The notes under the pieces were generated by a model. It was not told the origin of the DNA, did not search any database, and worked only from the letters and a program-made list of their open reading frames with translations. Both the position numbers and the translations under genes were made by a program. A stretch of 33,169 bases of DNA from Frankiales bacterium (GTDB lineage: Bacteria; Actinomycetota; Actinomycetes; Mycobacteriales; SCTD01), in NCBI GenBank assembly GCA_025965615.1, contig JAOPWP010000060.1, positions 1-33,169 on the forward strand. The letters are read 5' to 3'. Shown here piece by piece: positions 5,676 to 25,756 of this stretch. Each line of letters begins with the position of its first letter. Position 1 is the first letter of the stretch.

Positions 5676-5705
5676 ACCCCGTTCGAGCCGTCCGCCTGCC
5701 CTCCG

Positions 5706-5718
5706 TATGGTCTGACCA
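5706..5718 (+). promoter_or_regulatory. Predicted leaderless promoter of menB
   Basis: TATGGT at 5706-5711 fits the TAnnnT -10 consensus. Its last T is seven bases before the A of the ATG at 5718, exactly where a -10 stands for a transcript that begins at the start codon. No purine-rich ribosome binding site precedes the ATG, which agrees with a leaderless message, common in actinobacteria. The -35 is weak (TTCGAG near 5682-5687). Confidence 0.55.
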
Positions 5719-5719
5719 T
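5707..5719. promoter_or_regulatory. FadR-type operator, copy 1 (menB)
   Basis: ATGGTCTGACCAT is a perfect inverted repeat (6-base arms, 1-base centre) overlapping both the -10 element and the start codon of menB. It matches the TGGTCNGACCA half-site pattern known for FadR-type GntR regulators. Near-identical copies occur at 6724-6738 and 25735-25750 in this window, each at a promoter. Bound protein would block RNA polymerase here. It could also influence the divergent SDR gene. Confidence 0.7.
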
Positions 5720-6641
5720 GGCTGACACGACGATCTCCGAGCTCTTCGACCCCGCCCAGTGGCGCCCCGTGGAGGGCTTCGACTTCGAGGACATCACCTA
5801 CCACCGGTCCACCGATCCGGGACGCTCGGGCGCGGTGGTGCGCATCGCCTTCGACCGGCCCGAGGTGCGCAACGCCTTCCGCCCCGGCACGGTCGACGAG
5901 CTGCACCGCGCGCTGGACCACGCGCGGGTCTCACCGGACGTCGGCTGCGTCCTGCTCACCGGCAACGGGCCCTCCCCCAAGGACGGCGGCTGGGCCTTCT
6001 GCTCCGGAGGTGACCAGCGCATCCGGGGCAGGTCCGGGTACCAGTACGCCGAGGGCGACACGGCCGAGACGGTCGACCCGGCCCGGACCGGCCGGCTGCA
6101 CATCCTCGAGGTCCAGCGGCTCATCCGCACGATGCCCAAGGTCGTCATCTGCGTCGTCCCGGGCTGGGCAGCCGGAGGTGGCCACAGCCTCCACGTCGTC
6201 TGCGACCTCACGCTGGCCAGTGCCGAGCACGCCCGCTTCAAGCAGACCGACGCCGACGTGGGCAGCTTCGACGGGGGCTACGGGAGCGCGGGTCTCGTGC
6301 GCCACGTCGGGCAGAAGTTCGGCCGCGAGATCTTCTTCCTGGGACGGGAGTACACCGCCGAGCAGATGCACCGCATGGGTGCCGTCAACGAGGTGGTGCC
6401 GCACGCCGACCTGGAGAAGGTCGCCGTCGAGTGGGCACGGCTCATCGTCGCGAAGAGCCCGACGTCGCAGCGGATGCTGAAGTACAGCTTCAACGCCGTC
6501 GACGACGGCCTCGTCGGGCAGCAGGTCTTCGCGGGCGAGGCGACGCGGCTCGCCTACATGACCGACGAGGCGACAGAGGGGCGCGACGCGTTCCTCGAGA
6601 AGAGGGACCCGGACTTCTCGGCCTACCCCTACTACTTCTGA
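5718..6641 (+). CDS. menB: 1,4-dihydroxy-2-naphthoyl-CoA synthase
   Basis: 307 residues, crotonase fold, cytoplasmic. The enzyme closes the second ring of menaquinone by an intramolecular Claisen condensation of o-succinylbenzoyl-CoA. The protein follows the M. tuberculosis MenB very closely, including the diagnostic insertion GNGPSPKDGGWAFCSGGDQ (82-100), the SGYQYAEGDTA loop, the oxyanion-hole region WAAGGGHSLH (150-159) and TDADVGSFDGGYGS (177-190). D178, S183 and Y280 match the catalytic Asp185, Ser190 and Tyr287 described for the mycobacterial enzyme. I chose ATG 5718 because similarity begins there and the upstream extension to 5631 has no ribosome binding site. No other men gene is in the window. 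It sits at the head of a catabolic gene set with a paralogue next to it. It is most probably a true MenB, but a recruited ring-forming or ring-cleaving role cannot be excluded. Confidence 0.9.
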   Translation: MADTTISELFDPAQWRPVEGFDFEDITYHRSTDPGRSGAVVRIAFDRPEVRNAFRPGTVDELHRALDHARVSPDVGCVLLTGNGPSPKDGGWAFCSGGDQRIRGRSGYQYAEGDTAETVDPARTGRLHILEVQRLIRTMPKVVICVVPGWAAGGGHSLHVVCDLTLASAEHARFKQTDADVGSFDGGYGSAGLVRHVGQKFGREIFFLGREYTAEQMHRMGAVNEVVPHADLEKVAVEWARLIVAKSPTSQRMLKYSFNAVDDGLVGQQVFAGEATRLAYMTDEATEGRDAFLEKRDPDFSAYPYYF

Positions 6642-6687
6642 GCCTGCGCCTGCCGTTCGGGATCCGGAACACGTCCGACACGGGCTC

Positions 6688-6716
6688 TTGATAACGATCG
6701 TTCCCAGTCGTACAGT
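6688..6716 (+). promoter_or_regulatory. Sigma-70-type promoter of the badI-like operon
   Basis: TTGATA (6688-6693), a 17-base spacer and TACAGT (6711-6716) form a strong housekeeping-type promoter; transcription would begin near 6723, giving a leader of about 77 bases. The spacer holds a perfect palindrome AACGATCGTT (6693-6702), and an FadR-type site follows directly after the predicted start point. Confidence 0.65.
6693..6702. promoter_or_regulatory. Palindrome in the promoter spacer (possible second operator)
   Basis: AACGATCGTT is a perfect 10-base palindrome touching the last base of the -35 and filling the first half of the spacer. AT-rich outer and CG inner bases are a common look for TetR-type operators, but no matching regulator is encoded here and no second copy was found. 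Confidence 0.4.
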
Positions 6717-6723
6717 GCCAGCA

Positions 6724-6738
6724 AATGGTCAGGCCATT
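6724..6738. promoter_or_regulatory. FadR-type operator, copy 2 (badI-like operon)
   Basis: AATGGTCAGGCCATT has arms AATGG/CCATT and differs from the reverse strand of copy 1 (ATGGTCAGACCAT) by a single base across 13 positions. It begins one base after the predicted transcription start, a place suited to repression. Confidence 0.65.
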
Positions 6739-6799
6739 AGTCGACCTGCTCCGGCGCCCGTCCCGGCCGCCGTCCGCACTGCGAGAGGAACAGCACGAC

Positions 6800-7600
6800 A
6801 TGGACATGGACGACTTCACGGACGTGCTCTACGAGGTGAAGGACGGCCTCGCCTGGATCACCATCAACCGCCCCGAGCGCTACAACTCCTTCCGCGCCCG
6901 GACGGTCGACGAGCTCGTCCTGAGCTTCAAGCGCGCGTGGGCCAGCGACGAGGTGGGCGCGATCGTCCTGACCGGCGCCGGCGAGAAGGCCTTCTGCACC
7001 GGCGGTGACCAGAAGCAGCGCATGGAGACCGGTGACTACGGCCCGTCCGAGAGCGGCCTGTTCGAGGTCGACTCGCTGCACCGCGTCATCCGCGACGTCC
7101 CGAAGCCCGTGATCGCCGCAGTGAACGGCTTCGCGATCGGCGGCGGTCACGTCCTCCACCTGCTGTGCGACCTCACGATCGCGGGCGAGACGGCCCGCTT
7201 CGGTCAGAACGGCCCGCGCGTCGGCTCCTTCGACGCCGGTTTCGGCACCGGCCTGATGGCCCGGGCCATCGGCGAGAAGCGCGCACGCGAGATCTGGTTC
7301 CTGTGCCGGCAGTACAGCGCGCAGCAGGCGCTGGAGTGGGGCCTGGTGAACAAGGTGGTGCCCGCCGAGGAGCTGCACAAGGAGGTGACCGCCTGGGGCG
7401 AGGAGATCCTGAAGCTGTCCCCGACGTCCCTGAAGGTCATCAAGCAGTCCTTCAACGTCGACACCGAGCACTTCGCCGGCGTCGGCCAGATGGCCTACTC
7501 GAGCCTGAAGATGTTCGGCGAGACCGACGAGGCCAAGGAGGGCATCACCGCCTTCAACGAGAAGCGCAGCCCGGACTTCTCCGCGTACCGCGGCAACTGA
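6800..7600 (+). CDS. BadI-like crotonase (2-ketocyclohexanecarboxyl-CoA hydrolase family)
   Basis: 266 residues. It resembles Rhodopseudomonas BadI, which opens the ring of 2-ketocyclohexane-1-carboxyl-CoA to pimelyl-CoA by a retro-Claisen reaction. Shared features include the FCTGGDQ block (65-71), the glycine-rich oxyanion motif FAIGGGHVLH (111-120), and NGPRVGSFDAGFGT (137-150). There the MenB catalytic Asp is Gly while the following Ser143 is kept, as in BadI. It lacks the GPSPKDGGW insertion of MenB. Start ATG 6800 is taken over the frame's earlier GTG at 6725 because similarity begins there and an AGAGGAA box lies just upstream (a second ATG at 6806 is possible). It is the first gene of a short-gap operon with an acyl-CoA dehydrogenase, an SDR and an esterase. 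The exact ring substrate is unknown. Confidence 0.8.
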   Translation: MDMDDFTDVLYEVKDGLAWITINRPERYNSFRARTVDELVLSFKRAWASDEVGAIVLTGAGEKAFCTGGDQKQRMETGDYGPSESGLFEVDSLHRVIRDVPKPVIAAVNGFAIGGGHVLHLLCDLTIAGETARFGQNGPRVGSFDAGFGTGLMARAIGEKRAREIWFLCRQYSAQQALEWGLVNKVVPAEELHKEVTAWGEEILKLSPTSLKVIKQSFNVDTEHFAGVGQMAYSSLKMFGETDEAKEGITAFNEKRSPDFSAYRGN

Positions 7601-7601
7601 C

Positions 7602-8735
7602 GTGGAGCTCTCCGCAGACCAGCGCGAGTTCGCCGAGGCTATCCGCGGCTTCTGTGCGCAGGAGTGCGGGAGCCTCGCGCAGCGGGACGCCCTGACCGAC
7701 GGCGGCACCCAGTCGAACAGCCGAGAGGTGCTGCGCAAGCTGGCAGAGCTCGGCTGGCTCGGCGTCTCGCTCCCCGAGCAGTACGGAGGTGGCGGCGGCA
7801 GCTTCGTCGACGAGTGCGTCTTCCTCGAGCAGACCTCACGTGGGCTCGCGCCGATCACGGCCTACTCCACGGGCCTGACCGCGGCGCAGACCTACCTCAA
7901 GTGGGGGTCTGAGGATCAGAAGAAGACCATCGTCAGCAACCTCGTCGCAGGCAAGCTCGAGGCCATCGCGCTGTCCGAGCCCGGTGCCGGCTCGGACCTC
8001 GGCGGAGTCAGGCTGAACGCGACCCGGGACGGCGACGACTACGTCATCAACGGTCAGAAGACCTGGATCTCGGCGGCGCACATCGCCGAGCACCTGCTGG
8101 TGCTGGCCCGGGAGGACGTCACCGGCACCAAGCACCAGGGGCTGACCCTGCTCATGGTGCCGACCAGCACTCCCGGCCTCACGATGCGCGAGATCCAGAC
8201 GATGGAGCCGCACACCGTGAACGACGTCTTCTTCACCGACGTCCGGGTCCCTGCTGCGGCCGTGGTCGGCCAGCCGCGCGGCGCCTGGAAGCAGCTCATG
8301 CGCGGGCTCAGCGTCGAGCGGCTCATCATCGCCGCGATGAGCCTGGGCGCGGCCCAGCGCTCCCTCGAGGACCTGCTGGCCTACGTGCGCCAGCGCGAGC
8401 AGTTCGGCCAGCTGATCGGCTCGTTCCAGGCCCTTCGGCACCGCATCGCCGACCTCGCCACCGACATCGCCTTCGCCCGCTCCTTCCTGTACGACGTGGC
8501 GCACAAGGTCGACGCCGGCCACGAGGACGCGCTGGCCTCAGAGAGCGCCATGGCCAAGATGCGCTGCACCGAGATCGCGAAGAACACCGCGCTCGAGGCG
8601 ATGCAGATGATGGGCGGCTACGGCTACGCCCGCGAGTACGGGATGGAGGGCCAGGTCCGCAAGGCCCTGGCCCCACCGATCTACGGCGGGACCAACGAGA
8701 TCCAGCGCGAGATCATCGCCAAGAGCCTGATCTGA
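7602..8735 (+). CDS. Acyl-CoA dehydrogenase (IVD/LCAD-type active site)
   Basis: 377 residues, FAD-dependent flavoenzyme introducing a 2,3 double bond into an acyl-CoA. Signatures are ALSEPGAGSDLG (123-134), the WISAA flavin region (155-159) and MQMMGGYGYAREY (334-346). The position where most family members carry the catalytic Glu reads IYGGTNEI (360-367), i.e. Gly362. E239 in the SVERLIIA helix sits where isovaleryl-CoA and long-chain dehydrogenases place their base, so that subclass chemistry is expected, suited to branched or bulky acyl chains. The GTG start lies one base after the stop of the BadI-like gene, so translation is coupled. A cyclohexanecarboxyl-CoA or branched acyl-CoA substrate would fit the neighbours (inference). 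Confidence 0.88.
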   Translation: MELSADQREFAEAIRGFCAQECGSLAQRDALTDGGTQSNSREVLRKLAELGWLGVSLPEQYGGGGGSFVDECVFLEQTSRGLAPITAYSTGLTAAQTYLKWGSEDQKKTIVSNLVAGKLEAIALSEPGAGSDLGGVRLNATRDGDDYVINGQKTWISAAHIAEHLLVLAREDVTGTKHQGLTLLMVPTSTPGLTMREIQTMEPHTVNDVFFTDVRVPAAAVVGQPRGAWKQLMRGLSVERLIIAAMSLGAAQRSLEDLLAYVRQREQFGQLIGSFQALRHRIADLATDIAFARSFLYDVAHKVDAGHEDALASESAMAKMRCTEIAKNTALEAMQMMGGYGYAREYGMEGQVRKALAPPIYGGTNEIQREIIAKSLI

Positions 8736-8781
8736 GCGGCACGCCGAGCTCCGAGCACCCCCCTACGACGCGAGGACCAGC

Positions 8782-9675
8782 ATGACGACCCCGTACTCCA
8801 GCAGCGTGCTCGACGGCAAGCGGATCCTCATCACGGGAGGCGGCACCGGCCTCGGCCGGGGGGTCGCCCGGCACCTGGTGGACCACGGCGCCGAGGTCCA
8901 CCTCTGGGGACGTCGCGGCGCGGTCCTCGAGGAGGCCGCGACCGAGGCCTCTGCGTCGCGGCCCGGCAGCGTGCACGTGCACACCGTCGACGTGCGCCAG
9001 TTCGACCAGGTCGACGCCACCATGCAGACGATCTGGGACGAGCACGGCCCGCTCACCGGCGTGGTCAACAACGCGGCGGCCAACTTCATCGCCCAGACGC
9101 AGACCCTCAGCCCGCGGGCGTTCGAGGCGGTCACGGGCACCGTGATGAACGGGTCGTTCCACACCACGCTCGCGGCCGGCCGGCGATGGATCGAGGGCGG
9201 CCTCCCGGGCAGCATCGTCTCGACGCTGACGACCTGGGTGTGGACCGGGTCCGCCTTCGTCGTCCCGTCGGCGATGGCCAAGGCCGCCGTGCACTCCATG
9301 ACGATGTCGCTCGCCGTCGAGTGGGCCAAGTACGGCATCCGGCTCAACGCGCTGGCTCCCGGGCCGATCCCGACCGACTACGCCTGGGAGATGCTCAACC
9401 CGACGGACAAGAGCTCGGTCGGCGCGACCCAGCCCGACCAGATCCCGGCCGGGCGGACCGGCACGATGGAGGAGCTGGCGAACCTGACCATGTTCCTGCT
9501 GTCGGATGCCTGCGACTACCTCACGGGTCAGACCATCGCGATGGACGGCGGCCAGATGCTCGCCGGACCAGGGACGTTCGCCGGCCTGAACGGCCTGTCC
9601 GACCAGGACTGGGCCGACATCCGCGAGAAGAGCAAGGCCGCGACCGCGGCGAGCAAGGCCCAACGCTCGGTCTGA
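8782..9675 (+). CDS. SDR oxidoreductase, 2,4-dienoyl-CoA reductase-like
   Basis: 297 residues. Rossmann motif TGGGTGLG (18-25). NNAAANF (96-102) corresponds to the NNAAGNF signature of the mitochondrial-type 2,4-dienoyl-CoA reductases, and FVVPSAMAKAAV (159-170) and WAKYGIRLNALAPGPI (181-196) match the same group. As in those enzymes the usual YxxxK reads SxxxK (S163, K167). The likely reaction is NADPH reduction of a conjugated dienoyl-CoA, removing a double bond that blocks beta-oxidation. The ATG follows a GAGGA box by seven bases, 46 bases after the acyl-CoA dehydrogenase stop. It does not look like BadH, the hydroxyacyl dehydrogenase of the classical cyclohexanecarboxylate pathway. The C-terminal tail after 260 is longer than in plain SDRs. 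Confidence 0.83.
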   Translation: MTTPYSSSVLDGKRILITGGGTGLGRGVARHLVDHGAEVHLWGRRGAVLEEAATEASASRPGSVHVHTVDVRQFDQVDATMQTIWDEHGPLTGVVNNAAANFIAQTQTLSPRAFEAVTGTVMNGSFHTTLAAGRRWIEGGLPGSIVSTLTTWVWTGSAFVVPSAMAKAAVHSMTMSLAVEWAKYGIRLNALAPGPIPTDYAWEMLNPTDKSSVGATQPDQIPAGRTGTMEELANLTMFLLSDACDYLTGQTIAMDGGQMLAGPGTFAGLNGLSDQDWADIREKSKAATAASKAQRSV

Positions 9676-9703
9676 CCGGGCACCCCAGGACGGAGAGCAC
9701 GCC

Positions 9704-10468
9704 ATGCAGGTACTCCCGGGCGCCGAGCCCTTCTCGGCACAGGGCGACGACGTGGGCGTGCTCGTGCTCCACGGCTTCACCGGTTCGCCGCAGTCGATGC
9801 GCCCGCTCGCCGAGGCCCTCGCCGCGGCCGGTCGGACGGTCGAGCTGCCTCGACTGCCCGGACACGGCACGACCGTCGAGGACATGGCGACGACGACCTA
9901 CCCGGACTGGCTGGCCGCCGCCGAGGCAGCGCTCGCCGACCTGGCCGGCCGTACCCGTCAGGTGGTCGTCGCCGGGCTGTCCATGGGTGGTGCCCTCAGC
10001 CTGGGCCTCGCCGTCGAGCACCCGGAGCTGGCCGGTCTCGTGCTGGTCAACCCGGTCGTCGACCCGACTCCCTTCGCGCCGCTCGTCGAGATGGCGACGG
10101 GCCTGCTCGAGCAGGGCGTGGACTTCGTGGACGGTGTCGGCGGCGACGTCGCCGACCCCGAGGTCCAGGAGCTGGCCTACGACCGGATGCCGGTACGGGC
10201 GGTGCTGTCGCTGGTGTCCTCTCTCGACCAGCAGAACACCCGGCTCTCCGACATCCAGGTCCCGACCCTCGTGCTGCACAGCGTGCAGGACCACGTCGTG
10301 CCGCCCAGCTCCGTGGAGCTGCTGCAGGCCCGGCTGGCCGGACCGGTCGAGCGGGTCGAGCTGGCCAACGGCTTCCACGTCGCGACGATCGACCTGGACA
10401 AGGACGAGATCAACCAGCGGGCCGTCGCCTTCGTCGAGAAGGTGACGACAGCCGTCCCGCTCAGCTGA
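9704..10468 (+). CDS. Alpha/beta hydrolase, Est30-like carboxylesterase
   Basis: 254 residues, no signal peptide, so cytoplasmic. Catalytic triad by motif: nucleophile S93 in GLSMGG (91-96), acid D196 in VQDHVVP, and H225 in NGFHVATID. The oxyanion motif HGFTG (23-27) and the PGHG turn (53-56) are typical of the Geobacillus Est30/monoacylglycerol-lipase group. It could cleave esters, lactones or CoA thioesters; given the neighbours, a thioesterase or lactonase role in the same pathway is possible. GGACGGAGAG precedes the ATG. It is the last gene of its operon; its stop overlaps the end of the convergent plsB-like gene by eight bases. Confidence 0.88.
   Translation: MQVLPGAEPFSAQGDDVGVLVLHGFTGSPQSMRPLAEALAAAGRTVELPRLPGHGTTVEDMATTTYPDWLAAAEAALADLAGRTRQVVVAGLSMGGALSLGLAVEHPELAGLVLVNPVVDPTPFAPLVEMATGLLEQGVDFVDGVGGDVADPEVQELAYDRMPVRAVLSLVSSLDQQNTRLSDIQVPTLVLHSVQDHVVPPSSVELLQARLAGPVERVELANGFHVATIDLDKDEINQRAVAFVEKVTTAVPLS
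10461..10468. other. Shared palindromic overlap of two convergent stop codons
   Basis: TCAGCTGA is its own reverse complement: the + strand reads TGA for the esterase at 10466-10468 and the - strand reads TGA for the acyltransferase at 10461-10463. The two operons therefore overlap tail to tail with no room for a separate terminator. Confidence 0.9.
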
Positions 10469-12341
10469 CCAGCCGGGCCGCTCGTGCGGCCACCTGCGCG
10501 ACGCGCCGCTGCAGGACCCGGATCTCGTCCACGAAGTCGCTCCGGCGCTGCTGGACGTCCGGTGCCGTGGCCTCCACGAGGCCGCGGTGCCGGGCCAGCC
10601 TCAGCGCCGTCTGGAACATCTCCGCGGACACCGACTCGGCGCTGCTGATCCGGCGTTGCAGCACCCACTGCTGGCCGAGGAGCAGGCACTGCGAGACGAA
10701 CCGCTTCTCCTCGAACGCTGAGCCGTCGTCGAGCGACAGCAGCTGCTCGGCGACGATCGCGTAGGCGTCCACGAACGGCCGCAGGACCAGGTGCGCGACG
10801 AACAGGCGCATCGAGCCGAGGTGCCGCTCGGCGTCCTCGGCACTCGGGCTGACGTCGAGCGTCTGCAGGTCGGGTGCGATCAGTCGCAGCTCGGACTGCA
10901 GCTCAGCGGCGAACTGCTTGCGGTCGGGGAAGAAGAACTCGAACTTCAGCAGGTCCCGCAGGCGCAGGCACTCGGCCCACGCGTCGTACGTGCCGGAGCC
11001 GAGGTCGCTGGCGCTCACGAACGCGACCTCCGCGATCGCCCGCAGCACGAGGACGTGGATCGCGCTGTTGCGGTAGACGCCCGCGATCAGGTGCTGCTCC
11101 GGACCGATGCCCCAGACCGTCGCGGTGCCACCCGAGAAGCTCGTGAGGACCCCGGAGGTCACCAGGTCCTGAAGCGCCCGCCGGACGGTGGCGACGTCGG
11201 TGATGTCGGCTCCCCCGGCGATCGGCCAGTCACGGCTGCCGAGGTAGTCCGCGAGCGGCTCGAGCGTCTGCAGCACCTCCTCCAGCGCCAGCGCCCGGTC
11301 GGCGGCGAGCAGGGCCACGCAGACCGCGGCGGTGGGCGTCACGGGGGTGGCACGGTTGATCCGGTGGGACACCTCGAGGGCGACGCGCTCGACCGAGTGG
11401 GCCTCGGACGCGTCCTCGAGGCGGAGCTCGGCCAGCCGGGCCCGGAGGGCGATCGGCTCCCCGATGTCCATGTAGATCCGGCCGAGCCGCCGGTCGAGGC
11501 CGCGCAGGTAGCCCAGGAACCACCTGGCGTTCTCCGGGGTCTTCCCCTTGCCCCTCGCCTCGGACGTCATCAGCTCGACCTCGGCGGCCGGCAGCTGGTC
11601 GTAGACGATCGAGACGGGCACGAGCATGACCTCGTCGGTGTCGCGGTCCTCCGCGGCGTCCACGACGTAGCGGAGCAGGCCGAGGCGCGGCGGCCGGAGC
11701 TTCCCGGTGCGCGAGCGGCCTCCCTCGATCGACCAGACGAGGTTCGCCCGGTCCGCGACCAGCTGACCCATGAAGGCGCGCATCGCCAGCTTGTAGATCG
11801 GGATGTCGGCCGTGGCCCGGCGGATGTGGACGATCCCGGTCCGCCGCGCGATCGGGCCCAGAGGGAAGAAGTCCAGGTTGGCGCCGGCGACGCCGAACGG
11901 CATCGCGATGCCGAACCTGGGCAGCGTCGGCGGCACCACCCACTCGTCGAGGTAGGACCGGTGGGAGATCAGGAAGGCGAGTGCGTGCCGGGAGTCCAGG
12001 GCCCGGACGCGGGCGAGCCCCTCCTCGTCGACGAGGACGTCGTAGCCGCGCAGCATCCACTGCCCCAGCCGGGACCAGCCGGCGAGGACGACGGGGTTGT
12101 GGGAGGCCGACATCTCCCGCAGGTGCTCCGCGGCTTCGCGGCGCAGCTCGTCGACGGGTCGGCCCAGCGACGTCGCAGCGGCCTGCAGCCCCTGCTCGAG
12201 CTCCGCCGAGCCCAGCACGTTCCCGACGGCAGGGGTGCTCGTCGGGGCCGTCCGGCGCGCGGCGCTCGACGGGCGGAGGACCCGTCCGGCGAAGGCAGAA
12301 CCCTCCGAGAGCAGGGTCCGGGTGACACCCGCATCAGCCAT
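10461..12341 (-). CDS. plsB: Glycerol-3-phosphate 1-O-acyltransferase, PlsB type
   Basis: 626 residues. It catalyses the first acylation of glycerol 3-phosphate, giving lysophosphatidate. The four acyltransferase blocks are visible: HRSYLD (H127, D132), the FFPLGPIARRTGIVHIRR region (158-175), EGGRSRTGK (206-214) and VPVSIVYDQL (242-251). The C-terminal half is PlsB-like and helical. It is shorter than E. coli PlsB (about 800) and nearer in size to the shorter mycobacterial PlsB1 paralogue. It is soluble or peripheral; no clear membrane span is seen. It starts 8 bases inside the end of the HAD-PlsC gene, is the last gene of the long operon, and should feed the enzymes encoded just upstream. 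Confidence 0.9.
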   Translation of the reverse strand: MADAGVTRTLLSEGSAFAGRVLRPSSAARRTAPTSTPAVGNVLGSAELEQGLQAAATSLGRPVDELRREAAEHLREMSASHNPVVLAGWSRLGQWMLRGYDVLVDEEGLARVRALDSRHALAFLISHRSYLDEWVVPPTLPRFGIAMPFGVAGANLDFFPLGPIARRTGIVHIRRATADIPIYKLAMRAFMGQLVADRANLVWSIEGGRSRTGKLRPPRLGLLRYVVDAAEDRDTDEVMLVPVSIVYDQLPAAEVELMTSEARGKGKTPENARWFLGYLRGLDRRLGRIYMDIGEPIALRARLAELRLEDASEAHSVERVALEVSHRINRATPVTPTAAVCVALLAADRALALEEVLQTLEPLADYLGSRDWPIAGGADITDVATVRRALQDLVTSGVLTSFSGGTATVWGIGPEQHLIAGVYRNSAIHVLVLRAIAEVAFVSASDLGSGTYDAWAECLRLRDLLKFEFFFPDRKQFAAELQSELRLIAPDLQTLDVSPSAEDAERHLGSMRLFVAHLVLRPFVDAYAIVAEQLLSLDDGSAFEEKRFVSQCLLLGQQWVLQRRISSAESVSAEMFQTALRLARHRGLVEATAPDVQQRRSDFVDEIRVLQRRVAQVAARAARLVS

Positions 12342-19345: not shown

Positions 19346-19351
19346 CTCAGC

Positions 19352-20203
19352 TCACCGCCCGGTGAACCGGGGAGGACGCTGCTCCTTGAACGCGGCGAGC
19401 GCCTCGGGCATGTCGTCGGTCTGCGCCAGCAGGGCCTGACCGCGGTTCTCGAGCTCCAGGGCCGCCTTGTACGACGTGATCTCCTGGTTCCGCTGGATGG
19501 CCCGCTTGGACATGCGCACTCCGCCAGGGGAGTTGGTGGCGATGAGCCTGGCCGTTGCGAGTGCCTCGTCGAAGAGCTGGTCGGTCGGCACCATCCGGTT
19601 CGCCAGGCCGATCCGGACGGCCTCGTCGGCCCCGACGATCCGTCCGCTGAAGCCGATCTCGGCCGCACGGCCGGGCCCGATCAGGCGGGGGAGGGTGTAC
19701 GACGTGCCCAGCTCCCCCATCGACAGGCCCACCTTGATGAACGCCGCGCTGAACTTGGCCGTCGGTGCCACGAGCCGGATGTCTGCGGCCAGGGCAAGGG
19801 CCAGGCCACCGCCGGTGGCGGGGCCGTGGATGGCCGCGATGACGGGGAACGGGAGGTGCCGGATCGCGGCGATCCCACCGGCCGCCGTCTCCTGGAACTT
19901 CAGGAAGTCGCGGACGCCCATGCGGGTGATGGTCTCGATCTCGTCGAGGTCGAAGCCCGGGCAGAACGCACGCTCTCCCGTCCCGGTCAGGATGAGCGCG
20001 CGGACGTCGCTGTCCCGGAGCGCCTGCGCGGCCAGGCCGTACTCGGTGAACATCCGCTCGGTCTGGGAGTTCATCCGCTCGGGGCGGTTCATGCGCAGCA
20101 CCGCGACGTCGTCGAGGACCTCGAGCGAGAGCGTCGACAGCTCGACCACCCGTACGCCGGCCGCCATGGTGGTGGTGTCCAGCACTGCTGACACGCCGCT
20201 CAC
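19352..20203 (-). CDS. Enoyl-CoA hydratase/isomerase-family protein (paralogue B)
   Basis: 283 residues (about 271 if an internal ATG at 20167, reading MAAGVRVVELS, is used). Crotonase fold with oxyanion-hole regions ERAFCPGFDL (77-86) and HGPATGGGLALAL (126-138). The two hydratase glutamates are absent: the GGGxE position is Ala135 and the PE position is Phe155. Instead E164 in SMGELGTSYTLPRL lies where enoyl-CoA isomerases carry their acidic residue. An isomerase or other proton-shuttling reaction is therefore likelier than simple hydration. Its C-terminal 60 residues are nearly the same as those of the upstream gene, showing tandem duplication. GTG 20203 overlaps the upstream stop as GTGA. 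Confidence 0.87.
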   Translation of the reverse strand: MSGVSAVLDTTTMAAGVRVVELSTLSLEVLDDVAVLRMNRPERMNSQTERMFTEYGLAAQALRDSDVRALILTGTGERAFCPGFDLDEIETITRMGVRDFLKFQETAAGGIAAIRHLPFPVIAAIHGPATGGGLALALAADIRLVAPTAKFSAAFIKVGLSMGELGTSYTLPRLIGPGRAAEIGFSGRIVGADEAVRIGLANRMVPTDQLFDEALATARLIATNSPGGVRMSKRAIQRNQEITSYKAALELENRGQALLAQTDDMPEALAAFKEQRPPRFTGR

Positions 20204-21012
20204 CGCCCCGTGAAGACGGGCTCGCGGCGCTCCTTGAAGGCGGCGAGCGCTTCGGGCATGTCGCTGCCGCGCGTCAGGAGCGCCTGGCCGCGGTTCTCCA
20301 GCTCGAGAGCGGCTGCGTAGGAGGAGATCTCCATGTTGGCCTGCAGCGCCCGCTTGGACAGCTGGACCCCGCCCGGGGAGTTCGCGACGATCGTGCGCGC
20401 CATCGCGACGGCGTCGTCCAGCAGGTCGTCAGGCTGGCTGACGCCGTTCACGAGGCCGATCGTCAGCGCCTCGTCCGCCAGGACGAACCGCCCCGTGAAG
20501 CAGACCTCGCTGGCGACGGCAGGCCCGACCAGCCGGGTGAGCAGCCAGGAGACCCCGAGGTCGCCTGCGGACAGGCCGATGCGGACGAAGGCGGCGTTGA
20601 ACTTCACGCTCGTCGACGCGAGGCGGATGTCCGCAGCCAGCGCCAGCGAGAACCCGCCTCCTGCTGCCGCACCGTTGACCGCAGCGATGACCGGCACCCG
20701 CATCGACCGCACCGCGAGCAGGGCCCGTGCCGCGCGCTCCTGCTGCGCGAGCATCCCCATCGCCCCGAGGCTCGGGAGGTCGTCGGCGTCCGCGAGGTCG
20801 TAGCCGGAGCAGAACGCCTTCCCCGACCCGGTCAGGATGACGACACGCAGGGCGTCCTCGGCGTCGAGCGCCGCCGCCACGCGCTCGAGTTCGTCGAACA
20901 TCTCGTTCGTCATCGCGTTGTAGCGGGCAGGCCGGTTGAGCGCCAGGACGACGACTCCCGGCGTGGGCTCGCTGAGCAGCAGCGTCTGGTACGTCTCGGA
21001 CAGGACCTTCAC
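20200..21012 (-). CDS. Enoyl-CoA hydratase/isomerase-family protein (paralogue A)
   Basis: 270 residues. Crotonase fold with GKAFCSGYDLADAD (64-77) and NGAAAGGGFSLAL (113-125). As in its neighbour, the canonical hydratase Glu positions are Ser122 and Phe142, and an acidic residue (D151 in SAGDLGVSWLLTRL) is in the isomerase-like place. The shared tail reads NSPGGV.LSKRA, then ALELENRGQALL, MPEALAAFKE and FTGR. AGGAG lies six bases before GTG 21012. The gap to the LivF stop upstream is 54 bases without a hairpin or an evident promoter, so the gene is probably read from the importer promoter. Confidence 0.88.
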   Translation of the reverse strand: MKVLSETYQTLLLSEPTPGVVVLALNRPARYNAMTNEMFDELERVAAALDAEDALRVVILTGSGKAFCSGYDLADADDLPSLGAMGMLAQQERAARALLAVRSMRVPVIAAVNGAAAGGGFSLALAADIRLASTSVKFNAAFVRIGLSAGDLGVSWLLTRLVGPAVASEVCFTGRFVLADEALTIGLVNGVSQPDDLLDDAVAMARTIVANSPGGVQLSKRALQANMEISSYAAALELENRGQALLTRGSDMPEALAAFKERREPVFTGR

Positions 21013-21066
21013 GTGCGCTCCTCTGATCTGGGTCGAGGTGGTTCGTGCTGCGGCCGCGGCTCTCGG

Positions 21067-21759
21067 CTACAGGGCGATGAGCTCCTGCACGGCCCGCGAC
21101 TTGAGGTCGCTCACCGGGCCGGACTGGACGAGCTCGCCGCTGCGCAGGGCGAGGAAGCGGTCTGCCAGCTCCTGGATCATGGCGATGTGCTGCTCGACGA
21201 GCAGGAGCGCCGTCCCCCGGCTCTGGATCTCGCGGAGGGCCGCCATCAGCTGGTCGATGACGACGGGCGCCAGGCCCTCCGTCGGCTCGTCCAGCATGAG
21301 CAGCAGCGGTTCGGCCATGAGCGCCCGCCCGATCGCGAGCATCTGCTGCTCGCCACCGCTCAGGGCGGTGCCGTGGCGGTCGGAACCGCGGGCCAGGTTC
21401 GGGAACAGCTCGTACACCGACTCGAGGGACCACTGCCCCTTGCGCCCTGAGGCGCGACCGAGCAGGAGGTTCTCCTCGACGGACAGGTTCGGGAAGATCC
21501 GCTTCCCCTGAGGGACGAGGGACACGCCGCGGGTCGTGGCCTCGTAGCCCTTGGAGCCCAGCTTCTTCCCATCGACGAGGATCTCACCCCGGACGGTGGG
21601 CACGCCGTAGACCGACATCAGCGTGGTCGACTTTCCGGCGCCGTTGCGGCCGACCAACCCGACCGTCTCCCCGGGCGCGATGGAGAAGGAGACGCCCTGG
21701 AGCACCACCGCCCCGCCGTACCCCGCGTGCACGTCGCGGAACTCGAGGACGGCGGTCAT
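21067..21759 (-). CDS. livF: Branched-chain amino-acid-type ABC transporter ATP-binding protein LivF
   Basis: 230 residues. Walker A GRNGAGKST (37-45), Q-loop VPQGKRIFPNLSVEENL (82-98), signature LSGGEQQ (133-139), Walker B LLLMLDEP (152-159) and a switch His in VEQH. The IFPNLSVEENL stretch is diagnostic for LivF. Its ATG overlaps the LivG stop as ATGA; the frame's 57-codon upstream extension is a shadow of livG. With LivG it powers the LivHM channel. Liv-type systems in catabolic clusters often carry organic acids rather than amino acids. Confidence 0.93.
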   Translation of the reverse strand: MTAVLEFRDVHAGYGGAVVLQGVSFSIAPGETVGLVGRNGAGKSTTLMSVYGVPTVRGEILVDGKKLGSKGYEATTRGVSLVPQGKRIFPNLSVEENLLLGRASGRKGQWSLESVYELFPNLARGSDRHGTALSGGEQQMLAIGRALMAEPLLLMLDEPTEGLAPVVIDQLMAALREIQSRGTALLLVEQHIAMIQELADRFLALRSGELVQSGPVSDLKSRAVQELIAL

Positions 21760-22457
21760 GCGGCACTCCCGAGGTAGGCCTTGATGACGTTGTCGTCGGC
21801 GCGGACCTCTGCCGGCGTACCGGTGGTGAGGACCCGGCCCAGGTCGAGGACGGTGATCACGTCGCAGGTGCGGAACACGCCCTCGACGTCGTGCTCGACC
21901 AGCAGTGCCGCGACGTTGCGCTCCTGGCACAGGTCCCGCACGTGCTGCAGCATCTTCACCGACTCGCTGTTCACGAGCCCTGCGCAGGGCTCGTCGAGCA
22001 ACACCACCCTGGGGCTCCCGATGAGGGAGATGGCCAGGTCGACGGATCGCTGTGTGCCGTAGGCGATCTCGCTGCAGATCTCGTCGAGGCTCTCCTCGAG
22101 CCCGAGGGCAGACACGATGCCCTCGAGGTCAGGCTCGGCATTGCGCCGGGCGACCATGTTGAGCTGCTGGCGCACCGTCATCGACCCGAAGACGGACGTC
22201 CGCTGGAACGACCGCGAGATGCCGTGCTCGCGGCGCCAGCGGATCGAGCGGGTCGTGATGTCCTCGCCCTCGAGCTTGACGCTGCCCGAGGTGAGCTTCT
22301 TGCGACCGGACAGGGCGTCGATGAAGGTCGACTTGCCGGCACCGTTGGGGCCGATCACACCGTGCACGAGCCCGGGTGTCAAGGTGATGGCCACGTCGCT
22401 GAGCGCGGCCAGCGCGCCGTACCGCACCGTCACCCCGGTGGCCTCGAAGATGGTCAT
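21756..22457 (-). CDS. livG: Branched-chain amino-acid-type ABC transporter ATP-binding protein LivG
   Basis: 233 residues from ATG 22457, which overlaps the LivM stop as ATGA. Walker A GPNGAGKST (36-44), Q-loop ISRSFQRTSVF (80-90), Walker B VVLLDEPCAGL (151-161) and switch His in VEHD. The signature reads IAYGTQRSVDLA (131-142) rather than LSGGQ or the LSYGEQ usual for LivG, a divergent but apparently functional version. Compared with LivF it is the second ATPase half. Confidence 0.92.
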   Translation of the reverse strand: MTIFEATGVTVRYGALAALSDVAITLTPGLVHGVIGPNGAGKSTFIDALSGRKKLTSGSVKLEGEDITTRSIRWRREHGISRSFQRTSVFGSMTVRQQLNMVARRNAEPDLEGIVSALGLEESLDEICSEIAYGTQRSVDLAISLIGSPRVVLLDEPCAGLVNSESVKMLQHVRDLCQERNVAALLVEHDVEGVFRTCDVITVLDLGRVLTTGTPAEVRADDNVIKAYLGSAA

Positions 22458-23515
22458 CGTCCGCCCCCTCTGCGTGCGCCGATCGGGAGGCGCCGCCACA
22501 GGCGCTGCAGCCCGCCTGTGATGCCGCCTGGCAGGAACATGAGGACCAGGATCAGAGCGAGACCGGTGTAGAGGTGCAGGTTCCCGGAGTCGTTGAACTC
22601 CGACTGGGCGTAGATGTACAGGGCCGCACCCACGACCGGCCCCACGAGCGTGCCGAGCCCGCCGACGATGGCGGCGATCAGGGAGTCACCGGCGGTCGCG
22701 AAGCCCAGCAGTTCGGGCGACACGAACCGGCTGTTCAGCGCGAACAGGGCGCCACCCACGGCGGCCACTGCCCCCGAGATGACGAAGGCGATGAGGCGGG
22801 GCACGAACGTCCCGTAGCCGGAGAAGCGCATGCGCTCCTCGTTCTCGCGGATCCCTTCGAGGGTGGTGCCGAAGCGGGACCGACCGACGACCCAGAGGGC
22901 GACAGCTGCGAGGACCAGGCAGCTCCACGCGACGGGCCAGAACAGCCCCGGATCGCCGACCTCTGCCCGGGTCAGGCCGAGGAACCGGGCGTCGGCCGGG
23001 TAGGAGACCTGCAGTCCGTCGAAGGCACCCGTGACGGGCCGGGACGACGTCTGCACGGTGAGCGAGTACAGCGCCTGGCCCAGTGCCAGCGTCAGCATCA
23101 GGAAGCCCATGCCCGACGCGCGCACGACGAGCGCCCCGAAGAGCACCGCGAGCAGCGTCGCCGCCAGCACCGCGACCGCAGCCGCCCGCATCGGGCCCCA
23201 GTCCCAGTGCGTCGTCGTCATCGCGACCATGTACGCGGATCCGCCGAAGAAGGCCGTGTGCCCCAGGCTGATCAGCCCGAGGTGACGGGCCAGGAAGCCC
23301 AGGGAGAGCGCCAGCAGAGCCAGGATCACGGCGTCCAGGGCCAGGCTCATGATGAAGGGGTCGCTCGTGATGAACGGCACCGTCAGCCCCAGCCCGAACG
23401 TGGCGGCGGCCACTGCGGCCCCGATCAGCCAGCCCCGGCGCGAGGTGGACGCCGGGACTGCAGGCGCCTCGACGGCGGCGGGCAGGTCGTGCGTCGACGT
23501 GGTCGAAGCCGTCAT
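22454..23515 (-). CDS. livM: Branched-chain amino-acid-type ABC transporter permease LivM
   Basis: 353 residues with about nine or ten hydrophobic segments and a polar N-terminal tail of about 25 residues. The family motif LGLISLGHTAFFG follows the early helices and the cytoplasmic coupling loop GIRENEERMRFSGY precedes the last group of helices. ATG 23515 overlaps the LivH stop. It forms the inner-membrane channel with LivH. Confidence 0.92.
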   Translation of the reverse strand: MTASTTSTHDLPAAVEAPAVPASTSRRGWLIGAAVAAATFGLGLTVPFITSDPFIMSLALDAVILALLALSLGFLARHLGLISLGHTAFFGGSAYMVAMTTTHWDWGPMRAAAVAVLAATLLAVLFGALVVRASGMGFLMLTLALGQALYSLTVQTSSRPVTGAFDGLQVSYPADARFLGLTRAEVGDPGLFWPVAWSCLVLAAVALWVVGRSRFGTTLEGIRENEERMRFSGYGTFVPRLIAFVISGAVAAVGGALFALNSRFVSPELLGFATAGDSLIAAIVGGLGTLVGPVVGAALYIYAQSEFNDSGNLHLYTGLALILVLMFLPGGITGGLQRLWRRLPIGARRGGGR

Positions 23516-24366
23516 GCGGCTCTCCGTCCGGCGAGGCCCGTCGGCCGCAGCAGCAGCACGAGCACGAGGGCGAGGTAAGGGATGACGACGGCGATGCTCG
23601 GCGAGATCGTGGTGCCGACCGTCTGGGCGATGCCGAGGCCCATGCCGGCCACCATCGCCCCACCGATGCTCCCGACGCCTCCGATGACCACGACGATCAG
23701 CACCGTGATGAGGATGCCGGCCCCCATTCCGGGGTCGAGCGACACGTAGGGGACGGCGAGGGTGCCGGCGAGCCCCGCGAGGGCCGCGCCGAGCGCGACG
23801 ACGAACAGGCTGACCCGGTCGACGTTGATGCCCATGATCGAGGCCGTCTCGAGGTCGTGGCTCGCGGCCCGGATGTGCAGGCCGCGCTCGCTGCGGCTGA
23901 GGTAGAGCACGAGGGCGCTCGCCATGGCGAGCGCCGCGACGATGACGAACAGCCGGTAGGTCGGGTAGTTCGTCCCGAGGACCGAGATGGAGCCGCTGAG
24001 CGCCGACGGCGGGTCGGCCGACAGGGTGCGCTCGCCCCAGATGAGGACGACGATGCGCTCTCCCACCAGGGCCAGGCCGAAGGTGACCAGGCCGACCTCG
24101 ATGTGCGACCTGTGCTCGAGCCGCCGGAAGAAGACCAGCTCGAGCACGACCCCGACGGCGGCGAGCACGACGGGGACCACCAGGAGGGCCACCCAGAACG
24201 ACAGCCTCGTGCCCACCGAGTAGGCGACGTAGGCGCCGACCATGTAGAGGGCGCCGTGGGCGAAGTTCGTGACCCCACGCAGCCCGTAGATCATCGCAAG
24301 GCCGGAGCTGAGCACCATGAGCAGGGAGCCGAGAGCGACTCCGTTCAGCACTTCCGCGATGCTCAT
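23512..24366 (-). CDS. livH: Branched-chain amino-acid-type ABC transporter permease LivH
   Basis: 284 residues, about eight membrane helices. N-terminal GLRGVTNFAHGALYMVGAY is the LivH hallmark (normally GxxNFAHG), and the coupling loop ERGLHIRAASHDLETASIMGI (about residues 163-184) contacts the ATPases. The start ATG 24366 has a GGAGGA box six bases upstream. A strong hairpin separates it from the binding-protein gene. Confidence 0.93.
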   Translation of the reverse strand: MSIAEVLNGVALGSLLMVLSSGLAMIYGLRGVTNFAHGALYMVGAYVAYSVGTRLSFWVALLVVPVVLAAVGVVLELVFFRRLEHRSHIEVGLVTFGLALVGERIVVLIWGERTLSADPPSALSGSISVLGTNYPTYRLFVIVAALAMASALVLYLSRSERGLHIRAASHDLETASIMGINVDRVSLFVVALGAALAGLAGTLAVPYVSLDPGMGAGILITVLIVVVIGGVGSIGGAMVAGMGLGIAQTVGTTISPSIAVVIPYLALVLVLLLRPTGLAGRRAA

Positions 24367-24391
24367 GACGTCCTCCGGGTTCGGCGGGCCC

Positions 24392-24423
24392 GGTCCGCGG
24401 CCTGCATGCGCAGGCCGCGGACC
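24392..24423 (-). terminator. Strong stem-loop between binding-protein and livH genes
   Basis: Perfect 14-base arms (GGTCCGCGGCCTGC and its complement) around the four-base loop ATGC, between the binding-protein stop and the livH start, 19 bases after the former. There is no T-run on the minus strand, so it is probably a partial terminator or 3'-end stabiliser that keeps binding-protein mRNA in excess over the channel genes, as known for other ABC importer operons. Confidence 0.75.
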
Positions 24424-24442
24424 AGCGAGTCGGTCAAGGCCG

Positions 24443-25678
24443 TCAGATCTTGCACTCGGGGTTGGCCGGCGGCGTGATGGCCGGACCGTCTCCGGACGCC
24501 ACGATCTTGAACGCCTTGCTGGTGCCGGTGCCTTCGACCTTGCCGACGTAGGACGGGCGCACCACCTGGTGGTCGGCGCCGCGGACGGTGACCTTGCCGG
24601 TGATGCTGTCGAAGGACAGGTCCTTCAGCGCGTCCCGGACCTTGATGGGGTCACCGTTGGTGGCCTTCTCGATGCCGGCGAACAGCGTCTGGGCCGCCAG
24701 GTAGGCGTCCGCAGGCACGTAGTACGGCTTGCTGCCGTTGGCCTTCTCGTAGGCCGCGACGAACTCCTTGTTGGAGGGGTTGTCCAGCGCCACGTTGTAG
24801 CCGACGTTGTTGTAGAAGCCCGACACGACGTCGCCGAGGACCGGGAACAGGGGCTCGGAGACCATGTTGAAGCCGAGCACCGTCTTGAACTTGGCCGGCA
24901 GGTTGAACTGCTGGGCCTGCTTGACGAAGGCGACGCCGTCGGCGCCGTACTCCACCGCGAACAGGGCGTCGGCCTGGCTGCTCTGCAGCTTGGTGATGTT
25001 GGAGCCGAAGTCGGTCGTGTTGAGCGGTGCGAACTGCTCGAGCACGACCTCCTTGCCGGCCTTCTTCGCCGCAGCCTTGAAGACCGCGGCCGCGTCGTGA
25101 CCGGTCACGTAGTCGACAGCCTGGATGGCCCACTTCTGGCCGGGCAGGTCCTTGAGGCTCTCGCCCAGGGCGTTGATGTCCATCTTGTTGGTCTGGACGA
25201 CGTGGAAGGCGTTCGCCGCGCACTGCTTGCCGATCAGGTCGTCGGCCTTGCCGAGCGAGTTGAAGGACAGCGCCCCCAGCGACTCGAGCTGGAGGTTGAG
25301 CGCACCGTGCTCGGGTGAGGTCATCACCGAGCCGATGAACTTGGCGCCCTTCTGCGTGACAGCCTCACGAGCCGCGCGCAGCGTGCTGTCGGCGGTGGCG
25401 TCGGTGCTGAGCTCGACCAGCTCGATCTGGTGTCCCGCGACGCCGCCCTTGGCGTTGACGAGGGCGACGGCGACCTTCCACCCCTTCACCGAGTCGCTCC
25501 CGAACTGGGCCAGGGCTCCGGTCGACGGCGGGATGAGGGCGACCTTGATGGCCTCCTTGGGCCCGGACGCAGCTGACTTCCCCTCGGTGGAGGCCGAGTC
25601 GGTGGTGCTCGACCCGCAGGCAGTGACGACGGCGCTCAGAGCGAGCACACCGATCGCGCGCTTGACGTTCCTTCTCAT
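24443..25678 (-). CDS. livK: Liv-type ABC transporter substrate-binding lipoprotein
   Basis: 411 residues from ATG 25678 (MRRNVKRAIG). Lipoprotein signal peptide with positive N-region, hydrophobic core LALSAVV and lipobox VTAC, lipidated Cys21, then a Ser/Thr-rich linker. The mature part is a type-I periplasmic-binding fold: IPPSTGALAQFGSDSVKG (start of lobe 1), GPVMTSP-like loop GSVMTSPEH, GYNVAL, YVPADAYLAAQ and a C-terminal RGADHQ motif seen in Liv-type proteins. Two further cysteines (CAANAF region and the last CKI) may pair. It is the first gene of the long operon, under the promoter at 25728-25756. The ligand cannot be told; an organic acid or its fragment is likely given the catabolic context. 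Confidence 0.92.
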   Translation of the reverse strand: MRRNVKRAIGVLALSAVVTACGSSTTDSASTEGKSAASGPKEAIKVALIPPSTGALAQFGSDSVKGWKVAVALVNAKGGVAGHQIELVELSTDATADSTLRAAREAVTQKGAKFIGSVMTSPEHGALNLQLESLGALSFNSLGKADDLIGKQCAANAFHVVQTNKMDINALGESLKDLPGQKWAIQAVDYVTGHDAAAVFKAAAKKAGKEVVLEQFAPLNTTDFGSNITKLQSSQADALFAVEYGADGVAFVKQAQQFNLPAKFKTVLGFNMVSEPLFPVLGDVVSGFYNNVGYNVALDNPSNKEFVAAYEKANGSKPYYVPADAYLAAQTLFAGIEKATNGDPIKVRDALKDLSFDSITGKVTVRGADHQVVRPSYVGKVEGTGTSKAFKIVASGDGPAITPPANPECKI

Positions 25679-25727
25679 GTGCAGAACCCCTACTGGTCGG
25701 CTGGCCTCGGTTGCTGTGGTGCAAGAC

Positions 25728-25756
25728 ACACTAGTTTGGTCAGACCGTTTGCACAA
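25728..25756 (-). promoter_or_regulatory. Promoter of the importer/lipid operon
   Basis: On the minus strand TTGTGC (25751-25756), a 17-base spacer and TAGTGT (25728-25733) make a plausible sigma-70-type promoter; transcription would begin near 25721, 43 bases before the binding-protein ATG, with AGGGG as ribosome binding site. The spacer is almost wholly taken up by the FadR-type palindrome. Confidence 0.6.
25735..25750. promoter_or_regulatory. FadR-type operator, copy 3 (importer operon)
   Basis: TTTGGTCAGACCGTTT contains the core GGTCAGACC shared with copies 1 and 2. It lies precisely between -35 and -10, so binding would exclude RNA polymerase. One outer base (G in place of A) breaks the full TGGTC/GACCA symmetry. 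Confidence 0.65.

What the first reader, a model, noticed from the sequence alone, without database searches (positions are those of the whole stretch)
5707..25750. Three near-identical FadR-type palindromes at the heads of two convergent catabolic/lipid operons
ATGGTCTGACCAT (5707-5719), AATGGTCAGGCCATT (6724-6738) and TTTGGTCAGACCGTTT (25735-25750) share the core GGTCAGRCC, or its reverse complement. Each coincides with a promoter: on a leaderless -10, just after a predicted transcription start, and exactly between -35 and -10. This spacing and sequence agree with the TGGTCNGACCA operators of FadR-type GntR regulators, which respond to acyl-CoA. It implies one regulon of menB, the badI-like operon and the 14-gene importer/storage-lipid operon, run by a regulator encoded elsewhere.
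Basis: partly seen in the sequence, partly recalled or inferred. Interest (0 to 1): 0.8.

Follow-up and report, generated by a model that had tools for sequence, protein, structure and literature searches.

The report
FadR-type repressor regulon for acyl-CoA catabolism
Two of three look-alike DNA palindromes in this actinobacterial genome are very likely switches for one repressor, whose gene sits on another contig and whose targets probably import and break down ring-shaped or branched acids; the third, at menB, is probably a look-alike.

Summary
The bare 11-mer TGGTCNGACCA is no commoner than chance, but the longer site with A/T flanks is: WWNGGTCWGACCNWW (up to one mismatch) gives 14 places in the genome, 0 for the reversed pattern; 11 lie upstream of genes or, at menB, on the start. 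The likely regulator is a GntR/FCD (FadR-subfamily) gene on contig C148 with its own site; in related genomes its orthologue sits in the same gene cluster, with the core before itself and before orthologous operon heads. One regulon for the badI-like and importer/storage-lipid operons is well supported. Two points are not: the menB site is missing at the start of 80 orthologues and in 15 family relatives and looks like a by-product of the leaderless start; and acyl-CoA as effector, since the protein has an FCD domain with conserved metal-site histidines and its nearest profiles are NanR, PdhR and LldR.

The parts
6723..6739 (.). Operator 2, AAATGGTCAGGCCATTA, just downstream of the -10 of the badI-like operon
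   Evidence: Matrix score 22.5, first in the window; a site in 5 of 13 orthologous promoters, as AAATGGTCAGGCC in G888 and G270
25734..25750 (.). Operator 3, GTTTGGTCAGACCGTTT, between -35 and -10 of the importer/storage-lipid operon (minus strand)
   Evidence: Matrix score 20.0, second in the window; a site in 4 of 4 orthologous promoters
5705..5721 (.). Site 1, GTATGGTCTGACCATGG, overlapping the leaderless -10 and start codon of menB; probably fortuitous
   Evidence: Matrix score 17.1, third in the window, but not conserved in menB relatives
6688..6716 (+). TTGATA-17-TACAGT promoter of the badI-like operon
6693..6702 (.). Second palindrome, AACGATCGTT, overlapping the -35; TetR-type in look
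   Evidence: AACGNNCGTT at this place in 10 of 13 clusters with a badI-like orthologue at 70% identity or more
25728..25756 (-). TTGTGC-17-TAGTGT promoter of the importer operon
   Evidence: read by eye
5718..6641 (+). menB, 1,4-dihydroxy-2-naphthoyl-CoA synthase
   Evidence: NF006186 573.7 bits, cut-off 378
6800..7600 (+). badI-like/MenB-like crotonase, head of the plus-strand operon
   Evidence: Best model is the menB-type NF005637 (354.1, cut-off 380), then badI TIGR03210 (339.3, cut-off 467.6): neither reached
7602..10468 (+). acyl-CoA dehydrogenase, SDR and alpha/beta hydrolase: rest of the plus-strand operon
   Evidence: Pfam; gene calls
21067..25678 (-). LivK/H/M/G/F-type ABC importer, head of the minus-strand operon
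   Evidence: NCBIfam, below equivalog cut-offs
17268..21012 (-). two enoyl-CoA hydratase-family genes, an APH-family gene and an Rv3169-family gene
10461..17193 (-). storage-lipid part: G3P dehydrogenase, WS/DGAT-type, alpha/beta hydrolase, HAD-plsC-type, plsB-like
   Evidence: not found in the stretches of the 22 relatives' clusters

Best explanation
Sites 2 and 3 are operators (consensus about WWTGGTCAGACCAWW) of a GntR/FCD repressor of the FadR subfamily. Its gene is on contig C148 (11679-12401, +), divergent from an acyl-CoA dehydrogenase gene. Shown by sequence: the regulator gene; its own site; sites at operon heads; the linkage and the sites in relatives. Inferred: binding by this protein, as a dimer; repression (sites lie on or beside the -10, or in the spacer); release by a ligand, more likely a carboxylate-bearing pathway compound held at the FCD metal site than a long-chain acyl-CoA. 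Targets by site: badI-like operon, importer/storage-lipid operon, two C148 units, the regulator itself, and units on C72, C92, C137 and C157 (SDR with CoA-ligase, TRAP-type binding protein, CoA-transferase, MarR and mutase genes, acyl-CoA dehydrogenase). The regulon most likely imports and activates a ring-shaped or branched carboxylic acid and breaks it down by a beta-oxidation-type route, and in this genome couples this to glycerolipid/wax-ester synthesis.
For: Regulator: GntR + FCD. Linkage: orthologues of 74% (G144) and 69% (G101) inside one cluster with reciprocal best hits to both window and C148 genes, and in further genomes. Own site: 23 of 32 regulator upstreams (own genome included) have the core at 2 mismatches or fewer against 1.45 in local single-base shuffles (one of the 23, L189, at -151). 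Operon heads at 2 mismatches or fewer within 220 nt: acyl-CoA dehydrogenase 17 of 20, importer 4 of 4, ligase 10 of 11; upstreams of six other genes as control 2 of 64. Matrix from 33 sites of other genomes ranks the window sites 1-3, chance 0.017 per window at 17 or more. De novo: GGTC-1-GACC is the top perfect 4+4 inverted repeat, 19 of 57 heads and 0 of 64 controls. Genome: 14 against 0. DNA contacts of E. coli FadR (R35, T44, R45, T46, T47, R49, H65; PMC4259882, passages) correspond, by the offset of the PDB match, to R49, S58, R59, T60, T61, R63, T79; R49, R59, T61, R63 are kept in 32 of 32 orthologues.
Against: In G101 and G144 themselves the pattern AATGGTCAGACCATT at up to 3 mismatches shows little genome-wide excess (11+15 against 9+7; 8+10 against 6+7), though six of G101's places lie in one 23-kb stretch of the cluster, two of those in coding DNA. 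The badI-like promoter has the site in only 5 of 13 clusters with an orthologue at 70% or more. Two regulator orthologues (G981, G1058; 66%) lack the site at their own and the dehydrogenase promoter although the recognition helix is the same. Some ligase-promoter hits (G144, and by likeness G902, G848) belong to a larger palindrome and may be another regulator's. FadR contacts T44 and H65 are S and T here. Three of 14 genome places are coding (C83, C237, C239). Binding and expression are not shown. C148 and the window are not shown to be joined.
Confidence: 0.82

Rival explanations
1. All three palindromes are chance matches near promoters.
For: The 11-mer shows no excess in the window (19 against 19.9 expected) and little in the genome (31 against 25).
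Against: The longer motif is 14 against 0 in control; sites recur at orthologous promoters in other genomes; the count without prior motif finds the same inverted repeat.
Confidence: 0.05
2. The sites are real but read by another protein, such as the second FCD regulator (C281) or another GntR protein.
For: Many GntR proteins read TGGTNNGACCA-like sites (recalled); the genome has a second FCD gene and a further GntR-like hit on C134.
Against: C281 differs in the recognition helix (SRGTLRDAI for SRTTVREAL) and no good site lies in its 10.5-kb contig; the C148 gene has a site and the conserved linkage. C134 was not examined further.
Confidence: 0.09
3. The menB site is also a working operator of the same regulator.
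For: Perfect 11-mer core; matrix score 17.05, as good as the regulator's own site (17.07); menB lies beside the badI-like operon.
Against: None of the 80 menB orthologues kept has it at the start (one, L071, has the 11-mer at -93); none of 15 family relatives in which menB was found, of 23 searched; the nearest reads TAGGGTCTCGACCATG, close to the window's TATGGTCTGACCATG but without the palindrome; no close menB is in the relatives' clusters (best hits 45-48% in 10 of 22).
Confidence: 0.2
4. The effector is an acyl-CoA, as in E. coli FadR.
For: Many targets are acyl-CoA genes; Rv0494, a whole-length match in the PDB list, carries the name fatty acid metabolism regulator there.
Against: FCD domain, no FadR_C hit reported at E up to 1e-5. 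NanR zinc ligands D172, H176, H222, H244 (PMC8012715, passages) align with N161, H165, H210, H232; the three His are kept in 32 of 32 orthologues.
Confidence: 0.3

Closest known systems
E. coli FadR (GntR, FadR subfamily)
   Same: Like recognition helix; operator core of the TGGTNNGACCA kind; represses fatty acid degradation genes (PMC4259882, passages, operators in its primer table)
   Different: FCD instead of FadR_C effector domain; targets here are not the fad genes; two of seven DNA contacts differ
NanR, PdhR, LldR (GntR with FCD domain)
   Same: Nearest NCBIfam profiles (105.3, 91.1, 89.6 bits, all below cut-off) and among the PDB hits; FCD metal-site histidines
   Different: NanR reads a (GGTATA)3 repeat (PMC8012715, abstract in listing); other targets
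chcpca cluster of Rhodococcus aetherivorans BCP1
   Same: badI/badH/aliB-like beta-oxidation of alicyclic acids in an aerobic actinobacterium (PMC5906575, passages)
   Different: Holds two TetR-like regulators; 'GntR' does not occur in that paper's main text
Predicted FadR-type operators of Mycobacterium smegmatis
   Same: GTGTGGTCAGACCACAC (MSMEG_0596) and TGGTAAGACCA (MSMEG_3527) in Table 3 of PMC2018728 (passages)
   Different: Predictions upstream of the regulator genes only

Membership tests
GntR family, FadR subfamily | N-terminal GntR winged helix | tested here: met
   PF00392 61.1 bits, cut-off 27
GntR family, FadR subfamily | C-terminal FCD domain | tested here: met
   PF07729 87.4 bits, cut-off 24.3
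GntR family, FadR subfamily | Odd-centred TGGTNNGACCA-type operator upstream of the gene itself | tested here: met
   TTCGGTAAGACCAAT at C148:11641-11655; 23 of 32 orthologous upstreams at 2 mismatches or fewer. Binding itself not tested
Metal-binding FCD (NanR type) | Asp plus three His metal ligands | tested here: inconclusive
   Three His kept in 32 of 32; Asp172 of NanR aligns with Asn161
Acyl-CoA-responsive FadR (E. coli type) | FadR_C effector domain | tested here: not met
   Only GntR and FCD reported at E up to 1e-5
Acyl-CoA-responsive FadR (E. coli type) | Release from DNA by acyl-CoA | not testable with these tools
   Needs protein
badI (2-ketocyclohexanecarboxyl-CoA hydrolase) | TIGR03210 equivalog cut-off, window 6800-7600 | tested here: not met
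   339.3 bits against 467.6; a menB-type model scores higher, 354.1 against cut-off 380
menB | NF006186 and TIGR01929 cut-offs, window 5718-6641 | tested here: met
   573.7 against 378 and 416.7 against 342.7

The most novel reading that the evidence does not exclude
An undescribed FCD-type GntR repressor runs an actinobacterial regulon for uptake and breakdown of an alicyclic or terpenoid acid, and in this lineage a horizontally gained importer operon has been joined to a complete storage-lipid module, so that one metabolite signal turns on both breakdown of the acid and storage of its carbon as wax ester or triacylglycerol.
Probability: 0.4. Interest if true: 0.65.

Novelty: new member of a known kind. 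Interest (0 to 1): 0.5.

Why it matters
It turns three look-alike palindromes into a named candidate regulator, an operator matrix and a list of promoters that can be tested at the bench. It would tie carbon uptake, acyl-CoA breakdown and storage-lipid synthesis to one repressor, and it gives a handle on an uncharacterised cluster whose regulator has an orthologue in 31 of 390 genomes searched in one family of the order.

Tried and rejected
The bare TGGTCNGACCA count as evidence: rejected, no clear excess. menB as a conserved target: rejected. The C281 FCD gene as the regulator: set aside for lack of a good site on its contig and a different recognition helix. A phylum-wide search for the importer's binding protein gave only the own genome, 1 of 396. 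The family of G101 added no further genome, 1 of 17. No paper on this regulator was found in the held library: searches TGGTCAGACCA (5 papers, one relevant), GntR + cyclohexanecarboxyl + actinobacteria + regulator (0), GntR + FCD + Pseudonocardia + acyl-CoA dehydrogenase (0), FadR + GntR + TGGTC + palindrom + acyl-CoA (3), GntR + alicyclic + regulon (1), cyclohexanecarboxyl + badI + Rhodococcus (4); of these I opened PMC2018728, PMC4259882 and PMC5906575, passages only, and PMC8012715, passages only. No structure prediction was run.
Full report
WHAT WAS CLAIMED. Three palindromes in a 33-kb actinobacterial contig (C125 of a 3.14-Mb, 282-contig genome) were read as operators of a FadR-type regulator encoded elsewhere, uniting menB, a badI-like operon and a 14-gene importer/storage-lipid operon.

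THE OBSERVATION. The three sequences are present as stated. The operons are convergent: 6800-10468 (+; crotonase, acyl-CoA dehydrogenase, SDR, hydrolase) and 25678-10461 (-; binding protein, two permeases, two ATPases, two enoyl-CoA hydratase-family genes, an APH-family gene, an Rv3169-family gene, G3P dehydrogenase, WS/DGAT-type gene, hydrolase, HAD-plsC-type gene, plsB-like gene), 14 genes with a largest gap of 76 nt by my own gene calls. No terminator-like site was found on the minus strand within that operon. Site 2 starts 7 nt after the -10 of TTGATA-17-TACAGT; site 3 lies between TTGTGC and TAGTGT, 17 nt apart.

CHANCE. The 11-mer is uninformative: 19 hits against 19.9 expected in the window, 31 against 25 in the genome. 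The flanks carry the signal: AATGGTCAGACCATT at up to 3 mismatches gives 10 forward and 7 reverse matches against control 2 and 1, and WWNGGTCWGACCNWW at up to 1 mismatch gives 14 places against 0 for the reversed pattern. Ten of the 14 are in non-coding DNA upstream of genes (C125 x2, C148 x3, C72 x2, C92, C137, C157; C137 is some 490 nt from the next start and near the contig end), one overlaps the menB start, three are coding (C83, C237, C239). Of the 11 that are not coding, six lie before genes that act on acyl-CoA or activate acids: badI-like, C148 ligase, C148 dehydrogenase, C157 dehydrogenase, C72 SDR+ligase, C92 CoA-transferase. Non-coding DNA makes up 4-22% of the 12 stretches measured.

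THE REGULATOR. A Pfam FCD search of the genome gives two genes. One, at C148:11679-12401 (+), is GntR+FCD and reaches the contig end. C148 carries two acyl-CoA dehydrogenase-family genes, three SDRs, a thiolase, a CoA-transferase/hydrolase-type gene, an HMG-CoA-lyase-like gene, an enoyl-CoA hydratase-family gene and a CoA-ligase. It has three sites: before the ligase (2719), before a dehydrogenase (10497), and 23 nt before the regulator's own start (11641).

CONSERVED LINKAGE. The importer's binding protein has strong relatives in only 2 other genomes of 397 in the order. In both (G144, G101) window genes and C148 genes form one cluster with the regulator orthologue (74%, 69%). The regulator orthologue occurs in 31 of 390 genomes of G144's family and in 1 of 17 of G101's. 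I fetched cluster stretches of 21 of these 31 genomes and of G101, 22 clusters in all, 11 of them only over 19.9 kb (and earlier fetches).

FOOTPRINT. Upstream of the regulator the core is present at 2 mismatches or fewer in 23 of 32 loci (own genome included; 5 more at 3 and 4 at 4), against 1.45 in local single-base shuffles, mostly as TAnnTTnGGTCAGACCnTT 24-51 nt before the start; one of the 23 (L189) is at -151. Within 220 nt the dehydrogenase head has it in 17 of 20 clusters, the importer in 4 of 4, the ligase in 10 of 11, the badI-like head in 5 of 13 (orthologues at 70% identity or more); upstreams of six other genes, as control, 2 of 64. A count without prior motif finds GGTC-1-GACC as the top perfect 4+4 inverted repeat (ranked by promoter classes, then by number): 19 of 57 heads, 0 of 64 controls. 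Many of these genomes are close to each other, so the counts are not independent events. Some ligase hits lie in a larger palindrome seen in G144 and may be another regulator's.

RESULTS AGAINST. In G101 and G144 the 15-mer pattern shows little genome-wide excess over its control (11+15 against 9+7; 8+10 against 6+7), although six of G101's places fall in one 23-kb stretch of the cluster, two of them coding. Eight of 13 clusters lack a good site at the badI-like head. G981 and G1058 have the regulator (66%, same recognition helix) but no site at its own or the dehydrogenase promoter.

INDEPENDENT MATRIX. A matrix from 33 sites, none from this genome, scores the window sites 22.5 (6723), 20.0 (25734) and 17.1 (5705); the next best in the window, in coding sequence, is 11.9. 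First-order random sequence with this genome's base steps has 3 hits of 17 or more in 6 Mb, 0.017 per window. The sites were collected by likeness to TGGTCAGACCA, so the matrix is independent of this genome but not of the idea.

MENB. The menB site scores as well as the regulator's own site (both 17.1), but it is not found at the start in any of the 80 orthologues kept of 585 found (one, L071, has the 11-mer at -93) nor in the 15 family relatives with a menB hit of 23 searched. The nearest of these has the leaderless start TAGGGTCTCGACCATG; the window has TATGGTCTGACCATG. The palindrome thus most likely arose from the -10 and start codon. A local, recent operator is not excluded.

MECHANISM. 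Of the seven residues that touch DNA in E. coli FadR (PMC4259882, passages), five have the same residue here by the offset of the PDB match, T44 is S58 and H65 is T79; R49, R59, T61 and R63 are kept in 32 of 32 orthologues. Sites lie on or beside the -10 or in the spacer, so repression is the likely mode (inference). NanR zinc ligands D172, H176, H222, H244 (PMC8012715, passages) align with N161, H165, H210, H232; the histidines are kept in 32 of 32. This speaks for a metal-assisted carboxylate ligand over acyl-CoA, but it is an inference.

PATHWAY. Profiles point to alicyclic-type enzymes (badI, cyclohexanecarboxylate-CoA ligase and dehydrogenase, a pimC-like dehydrogenase on C157) but none reaches its equivalog cut-off, and the badI-like gene scores higher on a menB-type model, also below cut-off. 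G144 has a P450, a ferredoxin-reductase-type gene, alcohol and aldehyde dehydrogenases beside its badI-like operon. A ring-shaped or branched acid is the best guess; the substrate is not established. The storage-lipid genes were not found in the 22 relatives' stretches, so their place under site 3 looks particular to this genome. At E up to 1e-60 the badI-like gene is found in only 2 of 24 genomes of the own family (own, with two copies, and a 44% match in G014), which suggests horizontal gain.

KNOWN OR NEW. FadR-subfamily repressors with this operator type are well known; this one and its regulon I did not find in the held library. The nearest described system found, chcpca of Rhodococcus aetherivorans, has TetR-like regulators (PMC5906575, passages). 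I file it as a new member of a known kind.

Noticed in passing
window 6693-6702: AACGATCGTT palindrome overlapping the -35 of the badI-like operon; AACGNNCGTT, mostly as CTTGATAACG(A/C)TCGTTCACAG or close variants, at the same promoter in 10 of 13 orthologous clusters: a second, TetR-type input. G144's cluster holds a TetR_N gene (L173:10426-10974).
   Followed up: partly
G000:C172:5602-6372 (L103, L111): A 64% identical paralogue of the badI-like gene in another neighbourhood.
   Followed up: no
G000:C72 (L150:2549-2565): A weaker operator-like site (score 14.9) between a divergent AMP-ligase and a 4HBT thioesterase-type gene.
   Followed up: no
L150:4371-5528; L122:292-2861: A 2-hydroxyglutaryl-CoA dehydratase D-component gene among the operator sites on C72, and a pair of such genes in the G101 cluster.
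   Followed up: no
G000:C137 (L270): B12-dependent mutase fusion (B12-binding, MeaB, mutase) with a MarR gene; the best-scoring operator-like site seen in this genome (25.2) lies upstream near the contig end.
   Followed up: no
window 10461-17193: Glycerolipid/wax-ester module (plsB-like, HAD-plsC-type, WS/DGAT-type, G3P dehydrogenase) at the end of an importer operon; not seen in the relatives' cluster stretches.
   Followed up: partly
G144 ligase promoters: Larger palindromes such as GGTCCGACAATTCTAAAGTCGGACC at two ligase promoters of G144, with like starts in G902 and G848: another possible regulator.
   Followed up: no
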